The position numbers and the translations under genes were made by a program. A stretch of 30,545 bases of DNA from a virus. Location: positions 1-30,545 of the IMG/VR virus record IMGVR_UViG_3300028550_002288; one strand, 5' to 3'. The notes beneath the pieces are model-generated. The model did not search any database. It was given only the letters and a program-made list of their open reading frames with translations, and had not been told where the DNA came from. Below are positions 1,613-27,580 of the stretch, one piece after another (the stretch's first letter is position 1; each line of letters begins with the position of its first letter).

Positions 1613-3909
1613 TAGTACAAGATTACTGCTCAAAGCTAGGCTGGTATCTGGTCACTATCCCCGCTGGCTCCAAGGGTCCGACCCGCTTTGGCTGGCAGAA
1701 GCCAGAGCAGGCGCTGTCTGATCCAGAAGCCGCCAGAAAATATTATGAGCAGAATCCGAACCACAATGTAGGTCTACTACATGGGGCCAGCGGAACGTGC
1801 GCCGTAGACATCGATCATGTGGAATATACACAGATGATCTTTGAAGCACTTGGCATCGATTTCTCAGAGCTAATGCAGTCGGCACCCCAGATAATTGGCA
1901 GGGAAAATCGAGGCAAGTTAATCTTTAAGGCACCGCCCGATTTAATCACCCACAAGATTAGTTGGCCTGTCGAGGGGGATCCAAGAAAAAGTGAAGTCGT
2001 GTTCGAGCTAAGAGCAGGTGCAGTCCAAGATTGCCTCCCACCAAGCATCCATCCAGACACAGGTAGACCTTACACTTGGGCAGGTCGATCTATCTTTGAT
2101 GGTCTGCCAGACCTACCAACCCAGCTTCTGACAATATGGAGAGAGTGGGATAAGTTCCGACCGCAAATGATGGACGTTTGCCCTTGGAAACGAGAGCCAG
2201 ACTTTCAGCCACCGCGCAAGCAGCGGCCAAAAAATGACAGTACATCTGTCATCGATGCCTTCAATCAGGCCCACGATATGCACAGCTTATTAATACAGTA
2301 TGGATTTAAGCATACGTTCAAGGACAGATACTTGTCGCCAAACTCTACGTCAAAGCTGGCAGGCGTAAAGTTGTTTGAGGATGGCCGTGCCTTCAGCCAC
2401 CATGCGTCTGACCCCTTCGGAAATCACAGCTTCGATTGCTTTGAGCTATGGCTGCAAATGGAACATCAAGGCAATATCAGAGAGGCCATAAAAGATGCCG
2501 CTGGCTTCCTGCACATAAAGCAAGAGCCAGAGGAGATGTCTGCCCAAGAAAAGGCAGAGATATTTTTAAATGGGACAGAACTCTTAGCCAAGATGACAAC
2601 TAAGCCAAAGCCCAAAACAGACGCAGGGCCATTGGATCACATTCCAGCACATCTGCTGTCGATACCGGGCTGTCTGCAAGACGTTGTCAATGGATATTCA
2701 GTGTCAGCCATCAAGCCGCAGCCCCAGTTTGCTGTTCAAGCGGCCATCGCCTTTGGCTCCACAGTGATGGGCAGGCGCTGGGTGACAGACAGGCGCAACT
2801 TCTCCAGCCTGTACTTGCTTAACATTGGTGAGACAGGATCGGGCAAGGAACATACCAAGACCGTGCTGGAGCAATATTTGGAGCAGGCTGGACTTGAAGA
2901 CCTGATCGGCCCCGCAGGCTACACCAGTGGGGCAGGCGTGATGTCTACCCTGATTAATAAGCCAGTACATGTCGCGGTGGTCGATGAGCTTGGCAGGCAG
3001 CTAAAGGCGGCAAGTGCATCTGGTATGCAGCACAAGGCAGATGCGTTGACTGCCATCATGGAGTGCTTTGGCCGCACAGACGGCACTCTGAGACCGCAGG
3101 GCTATTCCACAATGACGCTCAAGTCATCTGAGGCCGAAAAGCTGGAGAAATATGTGCGGCGTCCAAGCTTGACCTTAGTGGGAATGTCCACCCCCAGCGA
3201 GTTTATGAAGGCAATTGGCGGGGGAGATGTGGCAAGCGGCCTGCTGAACAGGTTCCTGATTGTAAAGTCTGAAATCGGCGTCCAGCTATCGCAGCGCAAT
3301 ACAACGTCCACAATCTCAGACCGCCTCGCAAAGTGGGCAAACGAACACGCCCACGCCCACGATGGCGATCTGGACGCAGGCAATATACATGACATGCCCT
3401 CCAACCCAATTGAGGTGCCATTTACCCAAGAGGCTGAGAAGCTCTTGCGCGAATACGAAGAGCGGCTGGTGGAGGCCATTAGGAAAGAGACCGGGTCAGG
3501 TCTGGAGGCCATGTACAATCGGTCACGCGAAATTGCCATGCGTCTGTCTCTAATTATTGCCCGATCAATGGGACAGGACAGTATCGGCGTGGATGCCATG
3601 CAGTGGAGCATCGATTATGTCGAGCATTATGCAGCGGAAACCATCGCAATGTTTCGATCCAATATGTCTGAGGGTCCGTTCGATGCGGCCTGCAAGGCTG
3701 TCTTTGTTAAAATCGATGAGGCGGGGCAGGAGGGCATCACTGAGAGCCAACTTGCGAGAGGCGTGTCAGCATTCGCTAATATGGATCGGCGCAAGAGGGC
3801 AGACGTTCTGGACGTTCTGGTGATCGACAAGGGCATCCACTGCAAAAATTTAAATGAGGGCAAGCGGGGCCGTCCGACGATGGCGTGGCTGTCAGCAACA
3901 ACACACTAA
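1609..3909 (+). CDS. Primase-polymerase / helicase fusion protein
   Basis: Codes for 766 residues; the ATG at 1609 overlaps the regulator stop and is preceded by AAGGTG. Residues about 1-165 look like a bifunctional primase-polymerase domain: G-L-L-H-G-A-S-G-T-C-A-V-D-I-D-H (55-70) holds the acidic metal-binding pair, and E-L-R-A-G-A-V-Q-D-C-L-P-P-S (133-146) is the second conserved block. Residues 240-300 (Y-L-S-P-N-S-T-S ... G-R-A-F-S-H-H) form a linker domain common in phage primases. Residues 400-470 carry a P-loop G-E-T-G-S-G-K-E-H-T (408-417) and Walker B V-A-V-V-D-E (455-460), as in DUF3987-type helicases. The residue after GK is Glu, not Ser/Thr. Likely the replicative primase-helicase. 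Confidence 0.85.
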   Translation: MIVQDYCSKLGWYLVTIPAGSKGPTRFGWQKPEQALSDPEAARKYYEQNPNHNVGLLHGASGTCAVDIDHVEYTQMIFEALGIDFSELMQSAPQIIGRENRGKLIFKAPPDLITHKISWPVEGDPRKSEVVFELRAGAVQDCLPPSIHPDTGRPYTWAGRSIFDGLPDLPTQLLTIWREWDKFRPQMMDVCPWKREPDFQPPRKQRPKNDSTSVIDAFNQAHDMHSLLIQYGFKHTFKDRYLSPNSTSKLAGVKLFEDGRAFSHHASDPFGNHSFDCFELWLQMEHQGNIREAIKDAAGFLHIKQEPEEMSAQEKAEIFLNGTELLAKMTTKPKPKTDAGPLDHIPAHLLSIPGCLQDVVNGYSVSAIKPQPQFAVQAAIAFGSTVMGRRWVTDRRNFSSLYLLNIGETGSGKEHTKTVLEQYLEQAGLEDLIGPAGYTSGAGVMSTLINKPVHVAVVDELGRQLKAASASGMQHKADALTAIMECFGRTDGTLRPQGYSTMTLKSSEAEKLEKYVRRPSLTLVGMSTPSEFMKAIGGGDVASGLLNRFLIVKSEIGVQLSQRNTTSTISDRLAKWANEHAHAHDGDLDAGNIHDMPSNPIEVPFTQEAEKLLREYEERLVEAIRKETGSGLEAMYNRSREIAMRLSLIIARSMGQDSIGVDAMQWSIDYVEHYAAETIAMFRSNMSEGPFDAACKAVFVKIDEAGQEGITESQLARGVSAFANMDRRKRADVLDVLVIDKGIHCKNLNEGKRGRPTMAWLSATTH

Positions 3910-3923
3910 CAGGGAGAGAAGAT

Positions 3924-4196
3924 ATGAACAGATCAGAAATACTCGACACCGCCAAGAAGTACGTCACCAAGGACCGGAACAAGACACACGGCGACATGGA
4001 AGATAACTTCACCCTGATCGCTGAATACTGGTCCCTACACTTGGACATGAATATTGAGGCCCATGACGTGGCCGCAATGATGACCCTGCTAAAACTGGCA
4101 AGGCTAAAGTCAAACCCAAACGCAAAAGACAATTGGATCGACGGATGTGGCTATCTCTCTTGCGGTGGAGAACTAAAAATCAAGGATGATAAATGA
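3924..4196 (+). CDS. DUF6378-like phage protein
   Basis: Codes for 90 residues. AGGGAGAGAAGAT directly precedes the ATG at 3924; the same GGGAGAG leader core precedes the small genes at 4724, 5142 and 26637. Motifs T-H-G-D-M-E-D-N-F, I-A-E-Y-W-S, H-D-V-A-A-M-M-T-L-L-K-L-A-R and D-N-W-I-D-G-C-G-Y-L match, from memory, the DUF6378 family, a helical protein found in many phage replication or nucleotide-metabolism clusters. Activity is unknown; a nucleotide-binding role is only suspected. It overlaps the next gene by ATGA. Confidence 0.8.
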   Translation: MNRSEILDTAKKYVTKDRNKTHGDMEDNFTLIAEYWSLHLDMNIEAHDVAAMMTLLKLARLKSNPNAKDNWIDGCGYLSCGGELKIKDDK

Positions 4197-4360
4197 TGTC
4201 GGGCGAAAATGAACTGGCTGTATTCAAGTCTAAGTGCGCCAAGCAGCGCAGTGAGATTTCGCGGCTAACACAGGCGCTCGATGCCGCTATACAGGCTAAT
4301 CGGGTTCTGGTGAGGGACTTGCAGTGGATGAGGGGGGAGAGGGGGGAGAGGGATGATTAA
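4193..4360 (+). CDS. Small coiled-coil hypothetical protein
   Basis: Codes for 55 residues. The ATG at 4193 overlaps the upstream TGA, and AAGGA at 4182-4186 is spaced 6 bases away. A second ATG follows immediately. The middle (K-C-A-K-Q-R-S-E-I-S-R-L-T-Q-A-L-D-A-A-I) should form a coiled-coil helix. The end is charged and repetitive (R-G-E-R-G-E-R-D-D). No family recognised. It is the last gene before the gene-free stretch. Confidence 0.65.
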   Translation: MMSGENELAVFKSKCAKQRSEISRLTQALDAAIQANRVLVRDLQWMRGERGERDD

Positions 4361-4369
4361 TTATTACAT

Positions 4370-4463
4370 TATTTATTGCATCGCTAAACATTGGGGTATT
4401 TATCAATGATTTCAACGGGTTCTGATTTAATGTATTTATTGCATTTAATGCGACACATTGGGG
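4370..4463 (+). repeat. Bipartite direct repeat (iteron-like)
   Basis: Two copies of TATTTATTGCAT plus ACATTGGGG, 63 bases apart from start to start: 4370-4396 and 4433-4463. The spacer between the halves differs (6 versus 10 bases), so the two halves may be separate protein-binding sites. Confidence 0.7.
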
Positions 4464-4522
4464 GTGTGTACCCCACTGCCCCCCCTATACCCCCCCCTTA
4501 AAGTGGGGGAGGGGGAGGGTAC
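4460..4522. other. C-run/G-run imperfect hairpin with quadruplex potential
   Basis: A GTACCCC arm at 4468-4474 and runs of 7 and 8 C (4479-4485, 4490-4497) face runs of 5, 5 and 3 G (4505-4509, 4511-4515, 4517-4519) ending GGGTAC at 4517-4522. The ends form an inverted repeat and the interior pairs imperfectly. The C-rich arm gives G-quadruplex potential on the reverse strand. It could pause a fork or polymerase. Confidence 0.55.
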
Positions 4523-4661
4523 TGTAGTAATACAATATATATAATAATATATATATATATATATATAATAACTATAAGAACAAGGTGTCTGGGCGTGTCC
4601 GATTTATTGCGAAGAGGGGTTCGTAATAATTATGCAATAATTAATTAAATAATCTCACGTT

Positions 4662-4723
4662 TAACCCTTGAAGTATCCTTAAATGTATCCTATATATAAT
4701 TGTAGAAACAGGGAGAGAAAAAA
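4662..4723 (+). promoter_or_regulatory. Repeated promoter-leader element, copy 1
   Basis: Bases 4662-4687 are identical to 5081-5106. Within this, TTGAAG (4668-4673) is spaced 17 bases from TATATA (4691-4696, part of TATATATAAT), a plausible sigma70-type promoter. The leader that follows contains TAGAAACAGGGAGAG, whose GGGAGAG serves as ribosome site for the ORF at 4724. The segment from CCTATATATAATT onward recurs at 26601 ahead of another small gene. Confidence 0.65.
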
Positions 4724-4849
4724 ATGTTATATTATGGTCACCAAATCTTTGAAGAAGACAATGGAACTTTCAGCGTATCCGTTGGCGGTTGGGTTTACGA
4801 ATGTAAAACAATCGAAGAAGCAAAAAAACATATCCGTGACCATAAATAA
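4724..4849 (+). CDS. Small hypothetical protein (41 residues)
   Basis: Reads M-L-Y-Y-G-H-Q-I-F, with E-E-D-N-G-T-F-S-V-S-V-G-G-W-V-Y and C-K-T-I-E-E-A-K-K-H-I at the end: two short strands and a helix. It has its own promoter element and a strong GGGAGAG ribosome site. The longer ORF 4683-4955 in another frame spans it but lacks such signals. No family recognised. Short early phage proteins of this kind often modify host functions, but nothing here shows that. Confidence 0.65.
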   Translation: MLYYGHQIFEEDNGTFSVSVGGWVYECKTIEEAKKHIRDHK

Positions 4850-4855
4850 TCAAAA

Positions 4856-4869
4856 GGGGCTACGGCCCC
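4856..4869 (+). other. Small hairpin GGGGC-TACG-GCCCC
   Basis: A 5-bp GC stem with a TACG tetraloop just after the stop of the 41-residue gene. There is no T-run after it, so it is probably an RNA stability or partial termination element rather than a full terminator. Confidence 0.4.
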
Positions 4870-4893
4870 ACCACCAATCTGGGAGAAAGAATA

Positions 4894-5058
4894 ATGAGCG
4901 ATCTAGAAGCATTCACGCTGGCGCTGCGCCTGTCAGTAACCGCGCCAACAGATGAACTCGCAGAGGGGCCACTGCAAATCGCGCAGGAACTCTCAAGGCG
5001 GCTAACCGCCAAGCAAGTCAATCAGGCCAAATCAATCATCGAACTGGAGATAGCATAA
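4894..5058 (+). CDS. Small hypothetical protein (54 residues)
   Basis: The ATG at 4894 has GGGAGAAAGA just upstream. The sequence M-S-D-L-E-A-F-T-L-A-L-R-L-S-V-T-A-P-T-D then a helix I-A-Q-E-L-S-R-R-L-T, K-Q-V-N-Q-A-K-S-I-I-E-L-E is fully helical in appearance. GC content is clearly higher than in the gene before it. No family recognised. It shares the transcript started by the first promoter element and is followed directly by the second. Confidence 0.65.
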   Translation: MSDLEAFTLALRLSVTAPTDELAEGPLQIAQELSRRLTAKQVNQAKSIIELEIA

Positions 5059-5080
5059 TTTTTTTTAAATACTTTACATA

Positions 5081-5141
5081 TAACCCTTGAAGTATCCTTA
5101 AATGTAACTATATGTATATCAAGCAACAGGGAGAGACGAAC
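5081..5141 (+). promoter_or_regulatory. Repeated promoter-leader element, copy 2
   Basis: The first 26 bases (5081-5106) match copy 1 exactly. TTGAAG is at 5087-5092 and TATATG at 5109-5114 (spacer 16), or TATGTA at 5111 (spacer 18). The leader again ends CAACAGGGAGAGA before the ATG at 5142. The -10 box is weaker than in copy 1. Confidence 0.6.
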
Positions 5142-5333
5142 ATGGGATATCAAATCTTAATCAACGGCAGAAGCGCCTTCGGAACAACTTATGGCTTGAG
5201 TGCTTTGCAAATGACTATCCGTGACGCCCAGTCGAAAAGCAGGAACAAAAATTTTGCTGGCGATAAAATTGAAGTCGTAAATGAAGATCACACAAAAACA
5301 TTTTGGTCTTCAGAACTGGAGACAGCACAATGA
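5142..5333 (+). CDS. Small hypothetical protein (63 residues)
   Basis: The start at 5142 is chosen because GGGAGAGA lies 7 bases upstream; an ATG at 5112 would put the ribosome site inside the gene. The protein opens M-G-Y-Q-I-L-I-N-G-R-S-A-F-G-T and ends T-F-W-S-S-E-L-E-T-A-Q, with a central helix L-Q-M-T-I-R-D-A-Q-S-K-S: a mixed alpha/beta mini-protein. No family recognised. First gene of a chain of seven overlapping small genes. Confidence 0.7.
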   Translation: MGYQILINGRSAFGTTYGLSALQMTIRDAQSKSRNKNFAGDKIEVVNEDHTKTFWSSELETAQ

Positions 5334-5527
5334 GTGGCGCAACAGCACAAGAGTTCACAAAGTGGACAGACCACGCCAAGACCGTCGATCAAGACGCCCT
5401 CATCTACATCATCCAAGACTGCCGCAATGCGCGGCAGGCAATGAGTGGCTGGAACCCAGCCAAAGAGAATTATTATGCCGATCAGGGCATGACATATTCA
5501 GATGAACTCAGGAGGAGAATGAAATGA
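5330..5527 (+). CDS. Small hypothetical phage protein (65 residues)
   Basis: The ATG overlaps the upstream stop (ATGA). The sequence contains D-A-L-I-Y-I-I-Q-D-C-R-N-A-R-Q-A-M and W-N-P-A-K-E-N-Y-Y-A-D-Q-G-M-T-Y-S-D-E-L-R-R-R. The final Y-x-D-Q-x-x-T-Y-x-x-E-L-R-R-R pattern is one I associate with small helical proteins of other phages. Function unknown. Confidence 0.7.
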   Translation: MSGATAQEFTKWTDHAKTVDQDALIYIIQDCRNARQAMSGWNPAKENYYADQGMTYSDELRRRMK

Positions 5528-5688
5528 CCGATTACAAAGAACACCTAAAAATTCTAAATAACGCAGCACACGATGCTCTCAGAAAATGCCCACACAAACA
5601 CCCGCACAAAGAATTTGCTGATCTCCTTCAAGTTGCAAGGATTGTCGATGATATTATCGATCAACAGATAGAGCAACCGCATGACTGA
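5524..5688 (+). CDS. Small His-rich hypothetical protein (54 residues)
   Basis: ATG overlaps the previous TGA; AGGAGGAG is 8 bases upstream. The sequence holds a striking K-C-P-H-K-H-P-H-K-E segment, with one cysteine and three closely spaced histidines, before a helix F-A-D-L-L-Q-V-A-R-I-V-D-D-I-I. The Cys/His cluster could bind metal, but a full zinc finger is not visible. No family recognised. Confidence 0.65.
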   Translation: MTDYKEHLKILNNAAHDALRKCPHKHPHKEFADLLQVARIVDDIIDQQIEQPHD

Positions 5689-5857
5689 AGAGCAATTCAA
5701 CCGCATCATTAATGCAATGCCAAATAAAATCGATGAAGACCAAATGATCGCAATCTTCGCAACCATCATTGAGGGATACCAAATGGAAGACAAGTGGCCC
5801 GAAATTATGATCGGCATCACAAGATCAATCGGATACCAAGAGGGGACAGTGCATTGA
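5681..5857 (+). CDS. Small hypothetical protein (58 residues)
   Basis: The ATG at 5681 overlaps the end of the upstream gene by 8 bases. The sequence M-T-E-E-Q-F-N-R-I-I-N-A-M-P and then Q-M-I-A-I-F-A-T-I-I-E-G-Y and W-P-E-I-M-I-G-I-T-R-S-I is helical and hydrophobic in heptad spacing. No strong ribosome site, so translation is probably coupled. No family recognised. Confidence 0.6.
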   Translation: MTEEQFNRIINAMPNKIDEDQMIAIFATIIEGYQMEDKWPEIMIGITRSIGYQEGTVH

Positions 5858-6060
5858 CCAGACAGGCCATCAACCGTCAACAGTTCAAGGTGGATCACCT
5901 AACCTTTGAGCTTACAGACACAACTTACGCAGTCATAGCTGGTGAGGCCGTACACGCCAAAGACCGTAAGCCGATATTTACCGCCACCATAACCAAGGGA
6001 ACCGCAACAGAGCTTCGCAGACTGGCCCACCAGTTTGATGAGCGGGAGGATAAATTGTGA
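5854..6060 (+). CDS. Small hypothetical protein (68 residues), TTG start
   Basis: I place the start at TTG 5854, which overlaps the previous stop (TTGA) and has AGAGGGG about 8 bases upstream. A GTG at 5794 in frame would give 88 residues but lies deep in the previous gene. The core V-D-H-L-T-F-E-L-T-D-T-T-Y-A-V-I-A-G-E looks beta-stranded. It is followed by I-F-T-A-T-I and a helix A-T-E-L-R-R-L-A-H-Q-F-D-E-R. No family recognised. Confidence 0.55.
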   Translation: MTRQAINRQQFKVDHLTFELTDTTYAVIAGEAVHAKDRKPIFTATITKGTATELRRLAHQFDEREDKL

Positions 6061-6191
6061 CTAACAATCTAAGCAAGGCATCGTTTCCCTCAAAAGTAGG
6101 AAAAGATAAGAAATCAACTGACGGATTAAAACCAATTAATCGGGCAGCAAAACGCGCAATCAAAAGCGGAACGAAAAGGAAAAAGAAATGA
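6057..6191 (+). CDS. Small basic protein (44 residues), GTG start
   Basis: GTG at 6057 overlaps the previous stop (GTGA), with GGGAGG 7 bases upstream. Very lysine/arginine rich: ends R-A-A-K-R-A-I-K-S-G-T-K-R-K-K-K. Nucleic-acid binding is likely from charge alone. No family recognised. Confidence 0.55.
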   Translation: MTNNLSKASFPSKVGKDKKSTDGLKPINRAAKRAIKSGTKRKKK

Positions 6192-6469
6192 TAACTAAAT
6201 CTTGGGAATTTAGGGGCTACGAGTGGAGCCACGACATGCCAAAATGGGTCCAACAAAACTCATGCAAACGAACGGGTAGCCCAGACCTGTTTGTATACAC
6301 ACAAGCAGCAGAAACCCCCTGCAAGAGCGGCCAGTGGGTGTCAATCGATATGAGAGGCAACATGGAAATCCATGACAAAAAACCAGATGGATGGAAAAAA
6401 GAAGTCATCGCCAGTGCCGCATTCGTAATAACAGTTGTAATTGCAATCGTGGCAATGCTATCAATCTAA
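6188..6469 (+). CDS. Small C-terminally membrane-anchored protein
   Basis: Codes for 93 residues; the ATG overlaps the previous stop (ATGA). Residues 1-70 are soluble, with a Trp-rich start (K-S-W-E-F-R-G-Y-E-W-S) and two cysteines. Residues about 73-93 form one hydrophobic helix, I-A-S-A-A-F-V-I-T-V-V-I-A-I-V-A-M, preceded by W-K-K-E. This is a tail-anchored topology with the bulk probably in the cytoplasm. It could be an inner-membrane host modifier or a lysis regulator; no holin family was recognised. Last gene before the terminator at 6491. Confidence 0.65.
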   Translation: MITKSWEFRGYEWSHDMPKWVQQNSCKRTGSPDLFVYTQAAETPCKSGQWVSIDMRGNMEIHDKKPDGWKKEVIASAAFVITVVIAIVAMLSI

Positions 6470-6490
6470 ATGCACTTTCTGCTCAAACTA

Positions 6491-6518
6491 GCCCCGCTAT
6501 TTCGCGGGGCATTTTTTT
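6491..6518 (+). terminator. Strong intrinsic terminator ending the early operon
   Basis: Stem GCCCCGC (6491-6497) pairs with GCGGGGC (6504-6510) around a 6-base loop, followed by ATTTTTTT. It separates the small early genes from the terminase operon. Confidence 0.9.
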
Positions 6519-26497: not shown

Positions 26498-26524
26498 TCT
26501 AAAAACCTAGTTTTGGTTTGATTG

Positions 26525-26550
26525 GGGCGGTCTTCGGATCGCCCTTTTTT
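26525..26550 (+). terminator. Terminator after the capsid gene (UUCG hairpin, copy 1)
   Basis: GGGCGGTC and GATCGCCC pair around a TTCG loop closed by C-G, followed by TTTTTT. The 19 bases GGCGGTCTTCGGATCGCCC (26526-26544) recur exactly at 26925-26943. Confidence 0.9.
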
Positions 26551-26580
26551 ATTTAAATGTATTTAATTTGTATCTAGCTA

Positions 26581-26636
26581 TTGTAACTCCTGATATATAC
26601 CCTATATATAATTTATAGAAACAAGGGAGAGATCAA
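26581..26636 (+). promoter_or_regulatory. Promoter-leader element, copy 3
   Basis: CCTATATATAATT (26601-26613) followed by TAGAAACAAGGGAGAGA is nearly the same as the segment before the gene at 4724. A -35 candidate TTGTAA (26581-26586) is 16 bases from TATATA (26603-26608). It lies right after a terminator, so the next gene should be transcribed on its own. Confidence 0.65.
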
Positions 26637-26876
26637 ATGAAAAACGCATATATGAGTGAATGGGAAATCCAAGCGTTAGCCGAAGCAGCTTTGACATCTT
26701 ACGAAGGCACAGCTTCTTGGAGCCGCGCATTTGAAGCCGCTGTTGAGTTTTCCGCTGATGAATGGGAAATCAAAGCAACTAAAGCGCAGGCAGCAACTGC
26801 TGTAGCAATTGCCAAGACAGGCTGGCAGGGAATTAAGCAAAGCGTCCAGAAAGTACAATACCGACCACAGTATTAA
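26637..26876 (+). CDS. Moron-like small protein (79 residues)
   Basis: The ATG has GGGAGAGA 6 bases upstream. Reads M-S-E-W-E-I-Q-A-L-A-E-A-A-L-T-S-Y-E, S-W-S-R-A-F-E-A-A-V-E-F-S, E-I-K-A-T-K-A-Q-A-A-T-A-V-A-I-A-K: an alpha-helical, Ala-rich protein with a basic end (Q-K-V-Q-Y-R-P-Q-Y). It is set between the capsid and the next structural gene but has its own promoter and terminators, the usual layout of a moron expressed outside the late programme. No family recognised. Confidence 0.75.
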   Translation: MKNAYMSEWEIQALAEAALTSYEGTASWSRAFEAAVEFSADEWEIKATKAQAATAVAIAKTGWQGIKQSVQKVQYRPQY

Positions 26877-26893
26877 CCAAGCCTAATCAAAAC

Positions 26894-26918
26894 GTAACAC
26901 TAACGCCGTTAGCGTTAC
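26894..26918. repeat. Inverted repeat after the moron gene
   Basis: GTAACACTAACG (26894-26905) and CGTTAGCGTTAC (26907-26918) are inverted copies with one mismatch and a one-base centre. It could form a cruciform, bind a protein, or act with the next hairpin in termination. Confidence 0.65.
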
Positions 26919-26954
26919 AAAAAAGGCGGTCTTCGGATCGCCCCTTTCTTTTTG
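26919..26954 (+). terminator. Terminator (UUCG hairpin, copy 2)
   Basis: An A-run, then GGCGGTC-TTCG-GATCGCC, then CCTTTCTTTTT. Hairpin sequence identical to copy 1. The A-run before it may let it work in both directions. Confidence 0.85.
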
Positions 26955-26987
26955 TTCAGACCTGTTGTATTGTGCCAGCATCCCTGA

Positions 26988-27006
26988 CAGCCGCACAATG
27001 TGGCTG
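26988..27006 (+). other. Hairpin in the leader of the next structural gene
   Basis: CAGCCGCA (26988-26995) pairs with TGTGGCTG (26999-27006), one G-T wobble, loop CAA. It lies 16 bases before the GGAG ribosome site of the gene at 27032 and may protect the transcript or tune translation. No clear promoter is visible between 26955 and 27031. Confidence 0.4.
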
Positions 27007-27031
27007 ACATTTGCCACGACAGGAGATTATC

Positions 27032-27580
27032 ATGGCTAATACAACATTCACAGGACCAGTGCGTTCCGAAGGCGGCTTCCAAGTAGTATCAAAAAATGCA
27101 ACAACTGGTGTTTATACAGACATTGCAACTATTGCATCCACGGGCATTGTTACCGATAAATTTGTTAAGCACGTTGGCTTTGCCACAGGCGTAACAGTAA
27201 ACTCAACTGCTGGTGACTCGCCAACTATTGGCGAGTTTACACAACCAGCGAATACAATTATCACTGACATTAAGATTTTTTGTGACGTTGCTCCAGTTAT
27301 TGGATCAGGTGATATTGGTTACGAAGTAGGTACATCTTCTTCAGGCGCACAAATTGTAGCTACTCAAGCTGACGAAATCTTGGATGCTGGTACAACCGTT
27401 GTTGTACACAACGTAACAGTGACTGCATTAGTTCTTCAGACGCAAGATGGTACAACAGCCCCAGCTTCTGTTCAATATACAGACGCCGAAAGAACTATTT
27501 TCTGCAACATCACTAATACAGTGAATGCGACAACAGCAGGATCGTTTACGTTCATCATTGAGTATGTTCAAATTGCGTAA
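27032..27580 (+). CDS. Beta-rich virion structural protein
   Basis: Codes for 182 residues. Start at 27032 with AGGAG upstream. N-terminus A-N-T-T-F-T-G-P-V-R-S-E-G-G-F-Q-V-V-S-K-N-A is a pattern seen in phage virion proteins near the capsid gene. The rest is Thr/Val/Gly-rich, e.g. Q-P-A-N-T-I-I-T-D-I-K-I-F-C-D-V, typical of beta-sandwich decoration or fibre-like proteins. Likely on the head surface (inference). Confidence 0.7.
   Translation: MANTTFTGPVRSEGGFQVVSKNATTGVYTDIATIASTGIVTDKFVKHVGFATGVTVNSTAGDSPTIGEFTQPANTIITDIKIFCDVAPVIGSGDIGYEVGTSSSGAQIVATQADEILDAGTTVVVHNVTVTALVLQTQDGTTAPASVQYTDAERTIFCNITNTVNATTAGSFTFIIEYVQIA

What the first reader, a model, noticed from the sequence alone, without database searches (positions are those of the whole stretch)
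4662..5141. A promoter-leader module repeated ahead of small genes, also linked to the distant moron
Bases 4662-4687 and 5081-5106 are identical over 26 bases. The downstream half, CCTATATATAATT plus TAGAAACA and GGGAGAG, recurs at 26601-26630 about 22 kb away. Three small unrelated genes therefore share one regulatory sequence, suggesting a coordinated early regulon or mobile small-gene cassettes.
Basis: seen in the sequence. Interest (0 to 1): 0.6.

Follow-up and report, generated by a model that had tools for sequence, protein, structure and literature searches.

The report
Phage promoter with swappable small genes
In a widespread group of ocean viruses that infect Roseobacter bacteria, one conserved promoter sits in front of a slot where small genes of unknown, possibly host-taming, function are swapped almost cleanly, so the promoter can be used to find such genes.

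Summary
The repeat is real. Bases 4662-4687 and 5081-5106 are identical over 26 bp, where composition-matched random sequences never exceeded 17. A diverged copy lies before the moron at 26637.

The window belongs to a CRP-901-type roseophage. Thirty-two related contigs carry the module (class 1) at one syntenic place: ~300-770 bp after the primase gene, beside an origin-like region, heading the small-gene operon before the terminase. Thirteen unrelated gene families occupy the first position behind it. Identical modules precede different genes, and one gene family occurs behind several module variants. Contig L091 matches the window at 99.85-99.94% over 11 kb, yet has a different open reading frame exactly between start and stop codon.

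Two other lineage-specific modules do the same job elsewhere: class 2, and class 3 (four copies in each isolate, CRP-901 and CRP-902). All share TTGnnn, 16-17 bp, TATATR, but have unrelated operator-like cores. They draw on a partly shared gene pool that includes homologues of the window's first gene and moron.

Best reading: a promoter-Shine-Dalgarno module holding an exchange slot for accessory genes. Early timing and counter-defence are inferred. New variant of a known kind (morons, SAS/ESAS, archaeal anti-defence promoters).

The parts
4361..4661 (.). Conserved intergenic, origin-like region before copy 1: TTWAYTGC repeats, G/C-run dyad, AT-rich tract
   Evidence: Aligns across 26 contigs; repeats 3-7 per 325 bp in that type against at most 2 in shuffles
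4634..4717 (+). Class 1 module, copy 1: A/T-rich upstream part, 26-bp core, -10, leader, Shine-Dalgarno
   Evidence: nhmmer family of class 1 modules, E about 1e-16
4668..4673 (+). -35-like hexamer TTGAAG, copy 1
   Evidence: TTGnnn, 16-17 bp, TATATR kept in classes 1, 2 and 3
4691..4696 (+). -10-like hexamer TATATA, copy 1 (an overlapping alternative TATAAT lies a few bases further on)
4724..4849 (+). Exchangeable small gene 1 (41 aa)
   Evidence: Replaced start-to-stop in L091 (88 aa) and L008 (41 aa, unrelated); homologue behind class 3 in L155
4894..5058 (+). Small gene between the two modules (54 aa)
   Evidence: Kept in L008, L088, L089, L091, L105; second in the operon of L112, L114 and L122
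5053..5135 (+). Class 1 module, copy 2 (-35 5087-5092, -10-like TATATG 5109-5114)
5142..5333 (+). Exchangeable small gene 2 (63 aa)
   Evidence: Replaced by an unrelated 71-aa gene in L105; sits behind a different class 1 variant in L096
5330..6469 (+). Rest of the small-gene operon behind the module
   Evidence: Syntenic in related contigs
6491..6510 (+). Terminator closing the operon before the terminase genes
   Evidence: 7 G-C pairs and a T run; -16.6 kcal/mol
26524..26545 (+). Terminator after the major capsid gene (first of two near-identical copies)
26581..26629 (+). Moron promoter and leader: TTGTAA, 16 bp, TATATA(TAAT), TAGAAACAAGGGAGAG
   Evidence: -35 region as in class 3 of CRP-901
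26637..26876 (+). Moron gene (79 aa), absent from CRP-901 and CRP-902
   Evidence: Empty site in CRP-901/902; homologues behind class 2 modules
26925..26942 (+). Second terminator copy, closing the moron unit
   Evidence: both copies match the single terminator at the CRP-901 empty site

Best explanation
The element is a sigma-70-type promoter fused to a very short leader and Shine-Dalgarno site. It marks and drives an accessory-gene exchange slot in CRP-901-type phages. SHOWN by comparison: a module of about 85 bp stays at one place in the genome while the gene behind it is replaced, ORF for ORF, and modules with their genes are sometimes stacked in tandem. SHOWN: two other module classes with the same -35/-10/leader layout, but a different sequence between -35 and -10, head small accessory genes at the end of the replication operon, and some families are shared between classes. 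INFERRED: host RNA polymerase transcribes these genes soon after infection. INFERRED: the class-specific core (direct GTATC repeats in class 1, palindromes in classes 2 and 3) is a binding site for a regulator, most likely a repressor that limits a strong promoter, as Aca proteins do at acr promoters. INFERRED: homology between modules on the left and conserved operon genes on the right lets co-infecting phages exchange whatever lies between. INFERRED: the genes mostly act on the host, counter-defence being the most likely role.
For: Class 1 modules in 32 contigs besides the window, syntenic between primase (with or without DUF6378) and terminase wherever the flanks are held. Thirteen unrelated first-gene families; identical cores before different genes (window and L091; L096, L097 and L098), and one family behind 2-4 module variants. 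Exact ORF replacement with flanks 99.85% over 4.7 kb and 99.94% over 6.3 kb. Class 2 and class 3 modules; 33 families behind the three classes, some shared: window gene 1 and L155 (51%, 2.6e-13), class 2 and class 3 (62-83%), moron and class 2 (44% over 43 aa, about 1e-8). TTGnnn-N16/17-TATATR-like in nearly all distinct cores of the three classes. Terminators bound the units. In prokaryote genomes the class 1 core occurs once, without the rest of the module. Precedents: PMC11065993, PMC9410906, PMC3203893.
Against: No transcription data. Loci were fetched with patterns from the core, so core conservation is partly built in; only the flanks, -10 and leader are independent. Contigs are not independent events, and metagenome assembly can join strains. 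A plain sigma-70 scan does not list these sites, because the -10 ends in R rather than T; a TATAAT about 20 bp from the TTG hexamer is an alternative -10. No encoded small protein has a known anti-defence domain. No cognate regulator was identified.
Confidence: 0.7

Rival explanations
1. Ordinary vertical inheritance: the module is simply the promoter of the post-primase operon, and small phage genes come and go everywhere. The first position is no special slot, and tandem copies are local duplications.
For: The module is syntenic and one per genome in most relatives. Several 'first' genes are second or later genes in other contigs (families FAM5, FAM6, FAM10, FAM12), so part of the variation is loss or gain in a variable operon.
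Against: Identical modules precede unrelated genes, and one gene family lies behind several module variants, which needs recombination. Over 11 kb, L091 and the window differ essentially only in this ORF. L090 carries two modules of different types side by side. Families are shared between module classes at other sites.
Confidence: 0.2
2. The element is part of the replication origin (for example primer transcription or an initiator site) rather than a gene-expression module.
For: It adjoins a conserved region with iteron-like repeats, an AT-rich tract and a G/C dyad just after the primase gene.
Against: Copy 2 lies 419 bp away without an origin region. The repeats switch from TGCA type to ACGTC type in L090, L106, L111 and L113 while the module does not. 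Modules of the same layout lie at sites without such a region. A transcript from here could still help origin opening.
Confidence: 0.08
3. It is a target of a recombinase or homing enzyme, so the sequence is kept for exchange and not for transcription.
For: Left-hand exchange breakpoints lie at the module's end.
Against: Right-hand breakpoints carry no module copy in most cases, and no recombinase accompanies the genes. -35/-10 spacing and Shine-Dalgarno are kept across three otherwise unrelated sequences, as a promoter needs. Breakpoints at the end of homology are what ordinary homologous recombination would give.
Confidence: 0.07
4. It acts mainly after transcription, as a translation-start or leader-RNA element like mycobacteriophage SAS.
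For: AAACAGGGAGAGA is kept next to the start codon, and ACAGGGAGAGA also occurs at 3909 before DUF6378.
Against: Most conservation lies upstream of any likely transcription start. No credible Rfam match. The leader differs between classes and within class 1 (TAGAAACAGGGAGA or GTAAGAGAGAGAGG).
Confidence: 0.05

Closest known systems
Morons (accessory genes with own promoter and terminator; definition as in PMC4378225)
   Same: Small genes inserted between core genes, own promoter, terminators, absent from close relatives. The 26637 unit fits closely; classes 2 and 3 look like moron arrays.
   Different: The promoter is shared and stays in place while the gene is swapped. Several units share a lineage-specific module. 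The isolates of this group are described as strictly lytic (PMC10149686), so lysogenic conversion is not the role.
Conserved early promoters of archaeal anti-defence genes (SIRV2, SSV and others; PMC11065993)
   Same: One conserved regulatory sequence in front of many small unrelated genes; sequence differs between virus lineages while the layout is kept.
   Different: Here a bacterial (sigma-70-type) promoter. Early timing and anti-defence function are not tested. Exchange behind a fixed promoter is seen directly between near-identical strains.
acr-aca promoters (PMC9410906)
   Same: Inverted repeats within the core promoter (classes 2 and 3), as expected of a repressor site.
   Different: No clear aca-like gene found in the operon; class 1 has direct repeats rather than a dyad.
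Start-associated sequences SAS/ESAS of Cluster K mycobacteriophages (PMC3203893)
   Same: Repeated sequence just upstream of many small genes of different families; ESAS adds inverted repeats whose sequence differs by subcluster.
   Different: SAS is a 13-bp GGGATAGGAGCCC tied to translation starts in many copies. Here -35/-10 spacing is the constant part, with 1-4 copies per genome.

Membership tests
Moron (unit at 26524-26942) | Own promoter directly upstream | tested here: inconclusive
   TTGTAA-N16-TATATA with leader similar to class 1; activity not tested
Moron (unit at 26524-26942) | Own terminator | tested here: met
   Terminators at 26524-26545 and 26925-26942
Moron (unit at 26524-26942) | Absent from relatives at the same site | tested here: met
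   CRP-901 and CRP-902 have one terminator and no gene there; window flanks 26512-26557 and 26924-27037 both match it in CRP-901
Moron (unit at 26524-26942) | Base composition unlike its neighbours (usual, not required) | tested here: not met
   G+C 46.7%, against 50.7% and 42.3% for neighbours and 47.8% for the window
Moron (exchangeable gene at 4724-4849) | Unit with own terminator, inserted between genes adjacent in relatives | tested here: inconclusive
   Promoter module present; hairpin after the gene without a T run on this strand; the gene is replaced, not inserted
Anti-defence-gene promoter family (PMC11065993 type) | Conserved regulatory sequence before several unrelated small genes of one genome | tested here: met
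   Two full copies and one partial in the window, four each in CRP-901/902; 33 families in the group
Anti-defence-gene promoter family (PMC11065993 type) | Transcribed immediately after infection | not testable with these tools
   Needs an infection time course
Anti-defence-gene promoter family (PMC11065993 type) | At least one downstream gene inhibits a host defence | not testable with these tools
   No Pfam, PHROGs or PADLOC annotation of the small proteins points to it
acr-aca operon | Inverted repeat inside the core promoter | tested here: not met
   Class 1, the class in this window, has direct GTATC repeats; classes 2 and 3 do have dyads
acr-aca operon | HTH aca gene in the same operon | tested here: inconclusive
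   The one clear HTH (1421-1609) lies before the primase, outside the operon; 5681-5857 has only a sub-threshold KorA match (14.9 bits, cut-off 26.7); not every operon protein was scanned
SAS/ESAS of Cluster K mycobacteriophages | 13-bp GGGATAGGAGCCC-like sequence at the start codon | tested here: not met
   Sequence read directly: AAACAGGGAGAGA(n)ATG
Promoters of a phage-encoded T7-type RNA polymerase | T7-type RNA polymerase gene in the phage | tested here: inconclusive
   No PF00940 hit in the window, CRP-901 or CRP-902, but the control did not ring either

The most novel reading that the evidence does not exclude
CRP-901-type phages keep a library of interchangeable counter-defence genes that circulates between phage lineages. 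Each lineage plugs the genes into docking slots held by its own promoter class, with its own operator and regulator. The promoter is thus both the switch and the address for gene exchange, and single ORFs are swapped between strains that are otherwise 99.9% identical.
Probability: 0.3. Interest if true: 0.78.

Novelty: new variant of a known kind. Interest (0 to 1): 0.6.

Why it matters
CRP-901-type phages are described as widespread and abundant in the ocean (PMC10149686), and nearly all their small genes are unknown. If the module marks host-takeover or counter-defence genes, it gives a sequence handle to list them in bacterial viruses (33 families here), as was done for archaeal viruses. 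It also offers a clear natural case, near-identical strains differing in one ORF, for measuring how fast phage populations exchange such genes.

Tried and rejected
Plain DNA search of annotated phages with 4000-6500: no match; relatives came through primase and terminase proteins instead. A sigma-70 consensus scan did not list the elements and found no excess over shuffles, so it was not used for or against. A T7-type RNA polymerase was not found (weak negative). Rfam found nothing credible. The idea that the module is an iteron of the neighbouring origin-like region was dropped: the repeat specificity switches while the module does not. A Tamlana genome hit (L123) and hits L116, L117, L121, L134, L138 and L142 match the core pattern only, lack the rest of the module, and were set aside as chance. 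One search failed for a query that was too short, and for an illegal search word.

Full report
WHAT THE WINDOW IS. The window is a 30.5-kb linear virus record. Its terminase large subunit is 82-83% and its primase 71-72% identical to those of the isolates Roseobacter phage CRP-901 and CRP-902. These two define the CRP-901-type genus of lytic phages of the marine CHAB-I-5 lineage (PMC10149686; that paper does not mention promoters). The window runs from divergent early genes through HTH, primase, DUF6378 and a block of small genes to terminase, portal and capsid. It is cut at both ends.

THE OBSERVATION. 4662-4687 and 5081-5106 are identical over 26 bp. Composition-matched random sequences of this length have a longest repeat of 13-17. 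Similarity continues on both sides, downstream as far as the start codons. The third copy, before the moron, is real but partial: 84% over 45 bp, E about 1e-6 in this record. It shares -10 and leader with copy 1 and lacks the 26-bp core.

CLASS 1 IN RELATIVES. Exact and degenerate scans of IMG/VR, followed by an nhmmer model, found class 1 in 32 contigs besides the window. Where flanks are held, it always sits after the primase (or DUF6378), beyond an intergenic gap of about 300-770 bp, and heads the small-gene operon that ends at the terminase genes. In the window a strong terminator at 6491-6510 closes that operon. The conserved part is about 85 bp: AAAATAAAgTAAATAA, about 14 bp, CCCTTGAtGTATCcgTAAAaGTATC, TAtaTaTAATTgTAGAAACAGGGAGAGA, start codon. 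The core was used to fetch loci, so its conservation is partly built in. The upstream A/T-rich part, the -10 and the leader were not in every pattern and are independent evidence. In 84,980 prokaryote genomes the core pattern occurs once, in Tamlana, without the rest of the module.

THE GENE BEHIND IT CHANGES. The first gene behind class 1 falls into 13 families without similarity to each other (E < 1e-2 linkage). The module is identical up to the Shine-Dalgarno site in the window (41-aa gene) and L091 (88-aa gene), and again in L096, L097 and L098 (three different genes). Conversely one family lies behind four module variants (L097, L106, L113, L114). The sharpest case is L091: 99.85% identical to the window over 4729 bp up to base 4726 (the start codon) and 99.94% over 6321 bp from base 4847 (the stop codon), with an unrelated ORF between. 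L008, from another metagenome, has a third gene at the same place. Behind copy 2, L105 carries a 71-aa gene in place of the window's 63-aa gene. L091, L088 and L089 come from one metagenome, so strains with different genes coexist there; assembly artefact is possible for a single contig but unlikely for all cases.

STACKING. The window's clade has two modules, most relatives one. L096 has module-MGYQ gene, and L112 has module-gene-s4894-MSGATA gene. An unequal crossover between such arrangements in the homologous modules would give the window's order (module-gene-s4894-module-MGYQ gene-MSGATA gene). L090 has two modules of different subtype in a row. The crossover itself is inferred.

TWO MORE CLASSES. 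The homologue of the moron in L126/L129 lies behind ATACCCCTTGATATATCTTGGGGTATCACTATATGTATT. This class 2 occurs in 24 contigs, where mapped at the end of the replication operon (CRP-901 coordinates about 12-15 kb), before seven families, twice in tandem in L145 and L148. Five records examined whole or in large part carry one class 1 and one class 2 module on opposite strands, 10.7-12.2 kb apart. At the same place CRP-901 and CRP-902 have four copies each of TTGTAATCTGTGACAnnTGTCA...TATATA...GTAGAGAGAGAGG, before gp24, gp25, gp27 and gp29 in CRP-901. This class 3 occurs in 35 more contigs, before 16 families counting the isolates. Across the three classes there are 33 families. Some occur behind more than one class: window gene 1 and L155 (51% over 43 aa, 2.6e-13); the MKVF family (class 2 and class 3, 62-71%); the MAYD family (class 3 including CRP-901 gp29, and class 2, 78-83%). 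The window's moron is homologous to a class 2 family (44% over 43 aa, about 1e-8).

COMMON LAYOUT. With the first TTG as -35, a TATATR-like hexamer follows after 16 or 17 bp in all 25 genuine class 1 cores, in class 2 and in most class 3 cores. It also does so in the moron promoter, TTGTAA-N16-TATATA. The sequence between and around the hexamers is different in each class: direct GTATC repeats 12 bp apart in class 1, palindromes in classes 2 and 3. That is the pattern expected of one promoter type carrying different operators. The alternative -10 TATAAT, about 20 bp from the TTG hexamer in class 1, cannot be excluded. If it is the true one, the GTATC repeats would look like an activator site.

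THE MORON. 26637-26876 lies between the major capsid gene and the next structural gene. CRP-901 and CRP-902 have no gene there and a single GGCGGTCTTCGGATCGCC terminator. The window has two copies of that terminator, one on each side of the unit. Two other contigs have the same moron at the same site. L092/L095 carry a different small gene with the same -10 and leader, inverted, near the GroES-like gene.

WHAT IT LIKELY DOES. Shown: conserved promoter-like module, exchange of the ORF behind it, a partly shared gene pool, terminator-bounded units. Inferred: host polymerase use, early timing, regulation through the class-specific core, recombination anchored in the module, counter-defence as the commonest role. 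There are precedents: archaeal viruses whose conserved early promoter precedes many unrelated small genes, with tested inhibitors among them (PMC11065993); acr promoters with an inverted repeat in the core bound by Aca repressors (PMC9410906); SAS/ESAS before many small genes in mycobacteriophages (PMC3203893); morons (PMC4378225). None of these memberships is complete here.

LIMITS.

Noticed in passing
window 4361-4661; L090, L106, L111, L113 upstream of class 1: Origin-like conserved intergenic region after the primase gene: repeats of TTWAYTGC type in most phages, replaced in concert by TAACGTC-type repeats in four contigs, followed by a G/C-run dyad and an AT-rich tract. It looks like an iteron origin whose initiator specificity has switched.
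   Followed up: partly
window 16737, 17300, 18239, 19693, 20832: Five consecutive genes begin with related N-termini (MANxIG...F...), a repeated start of about 20 residues on otherwise different proteins; perhaps a sorting or packaging tag of virion proteins.
   Followed up: no
L092 3300-4300; L095 700-1700 (reverse): Inverted cluster of small genes near the GroES-like gene; one has the same -10 and leader as the window's moron, the next a TTGACA-N17-TAGTGT promoter-like site.
   Followed up: partly
CRP-901 12017, 12647, 13266, 14279 (L083): The class 3 palindrome TGTGACAnnTGTCA reads as TGTGA-N6-TCA(C), which recalls a CRP/FNR-type site (from memory, not tested). Terminator-like hairpins directly precede three of these four promoters.
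   Followed up: partly
genes behind class 2 and class 3 in L145, L148, L156, L160: A few accessory products hint at enzymes: a SprT-like metalloprotease motif (HEVAHYVQF, E 0.001, below Pfam's cut-off) and, by eye, C39-peptidase-like N-termini (YCGPAVISAVTG, DCGVRAMSIAL).
   Followed up: no
window 5681-5857: Operon protein of 58 aa with a sub-threshold match to the KorA/TrfB repressor (E 0.03); a candidate regulator of the module.
   Followed up: no
L109, L110, L118 leaders: A class 1 subtype has TAGTGTGTAAGAGAGAGAGGAA instead of TATAATTGTAGAAACAGGGAGA, a leader resembling that of class 3, as if halves of modules recombine too.
   Followed up: no
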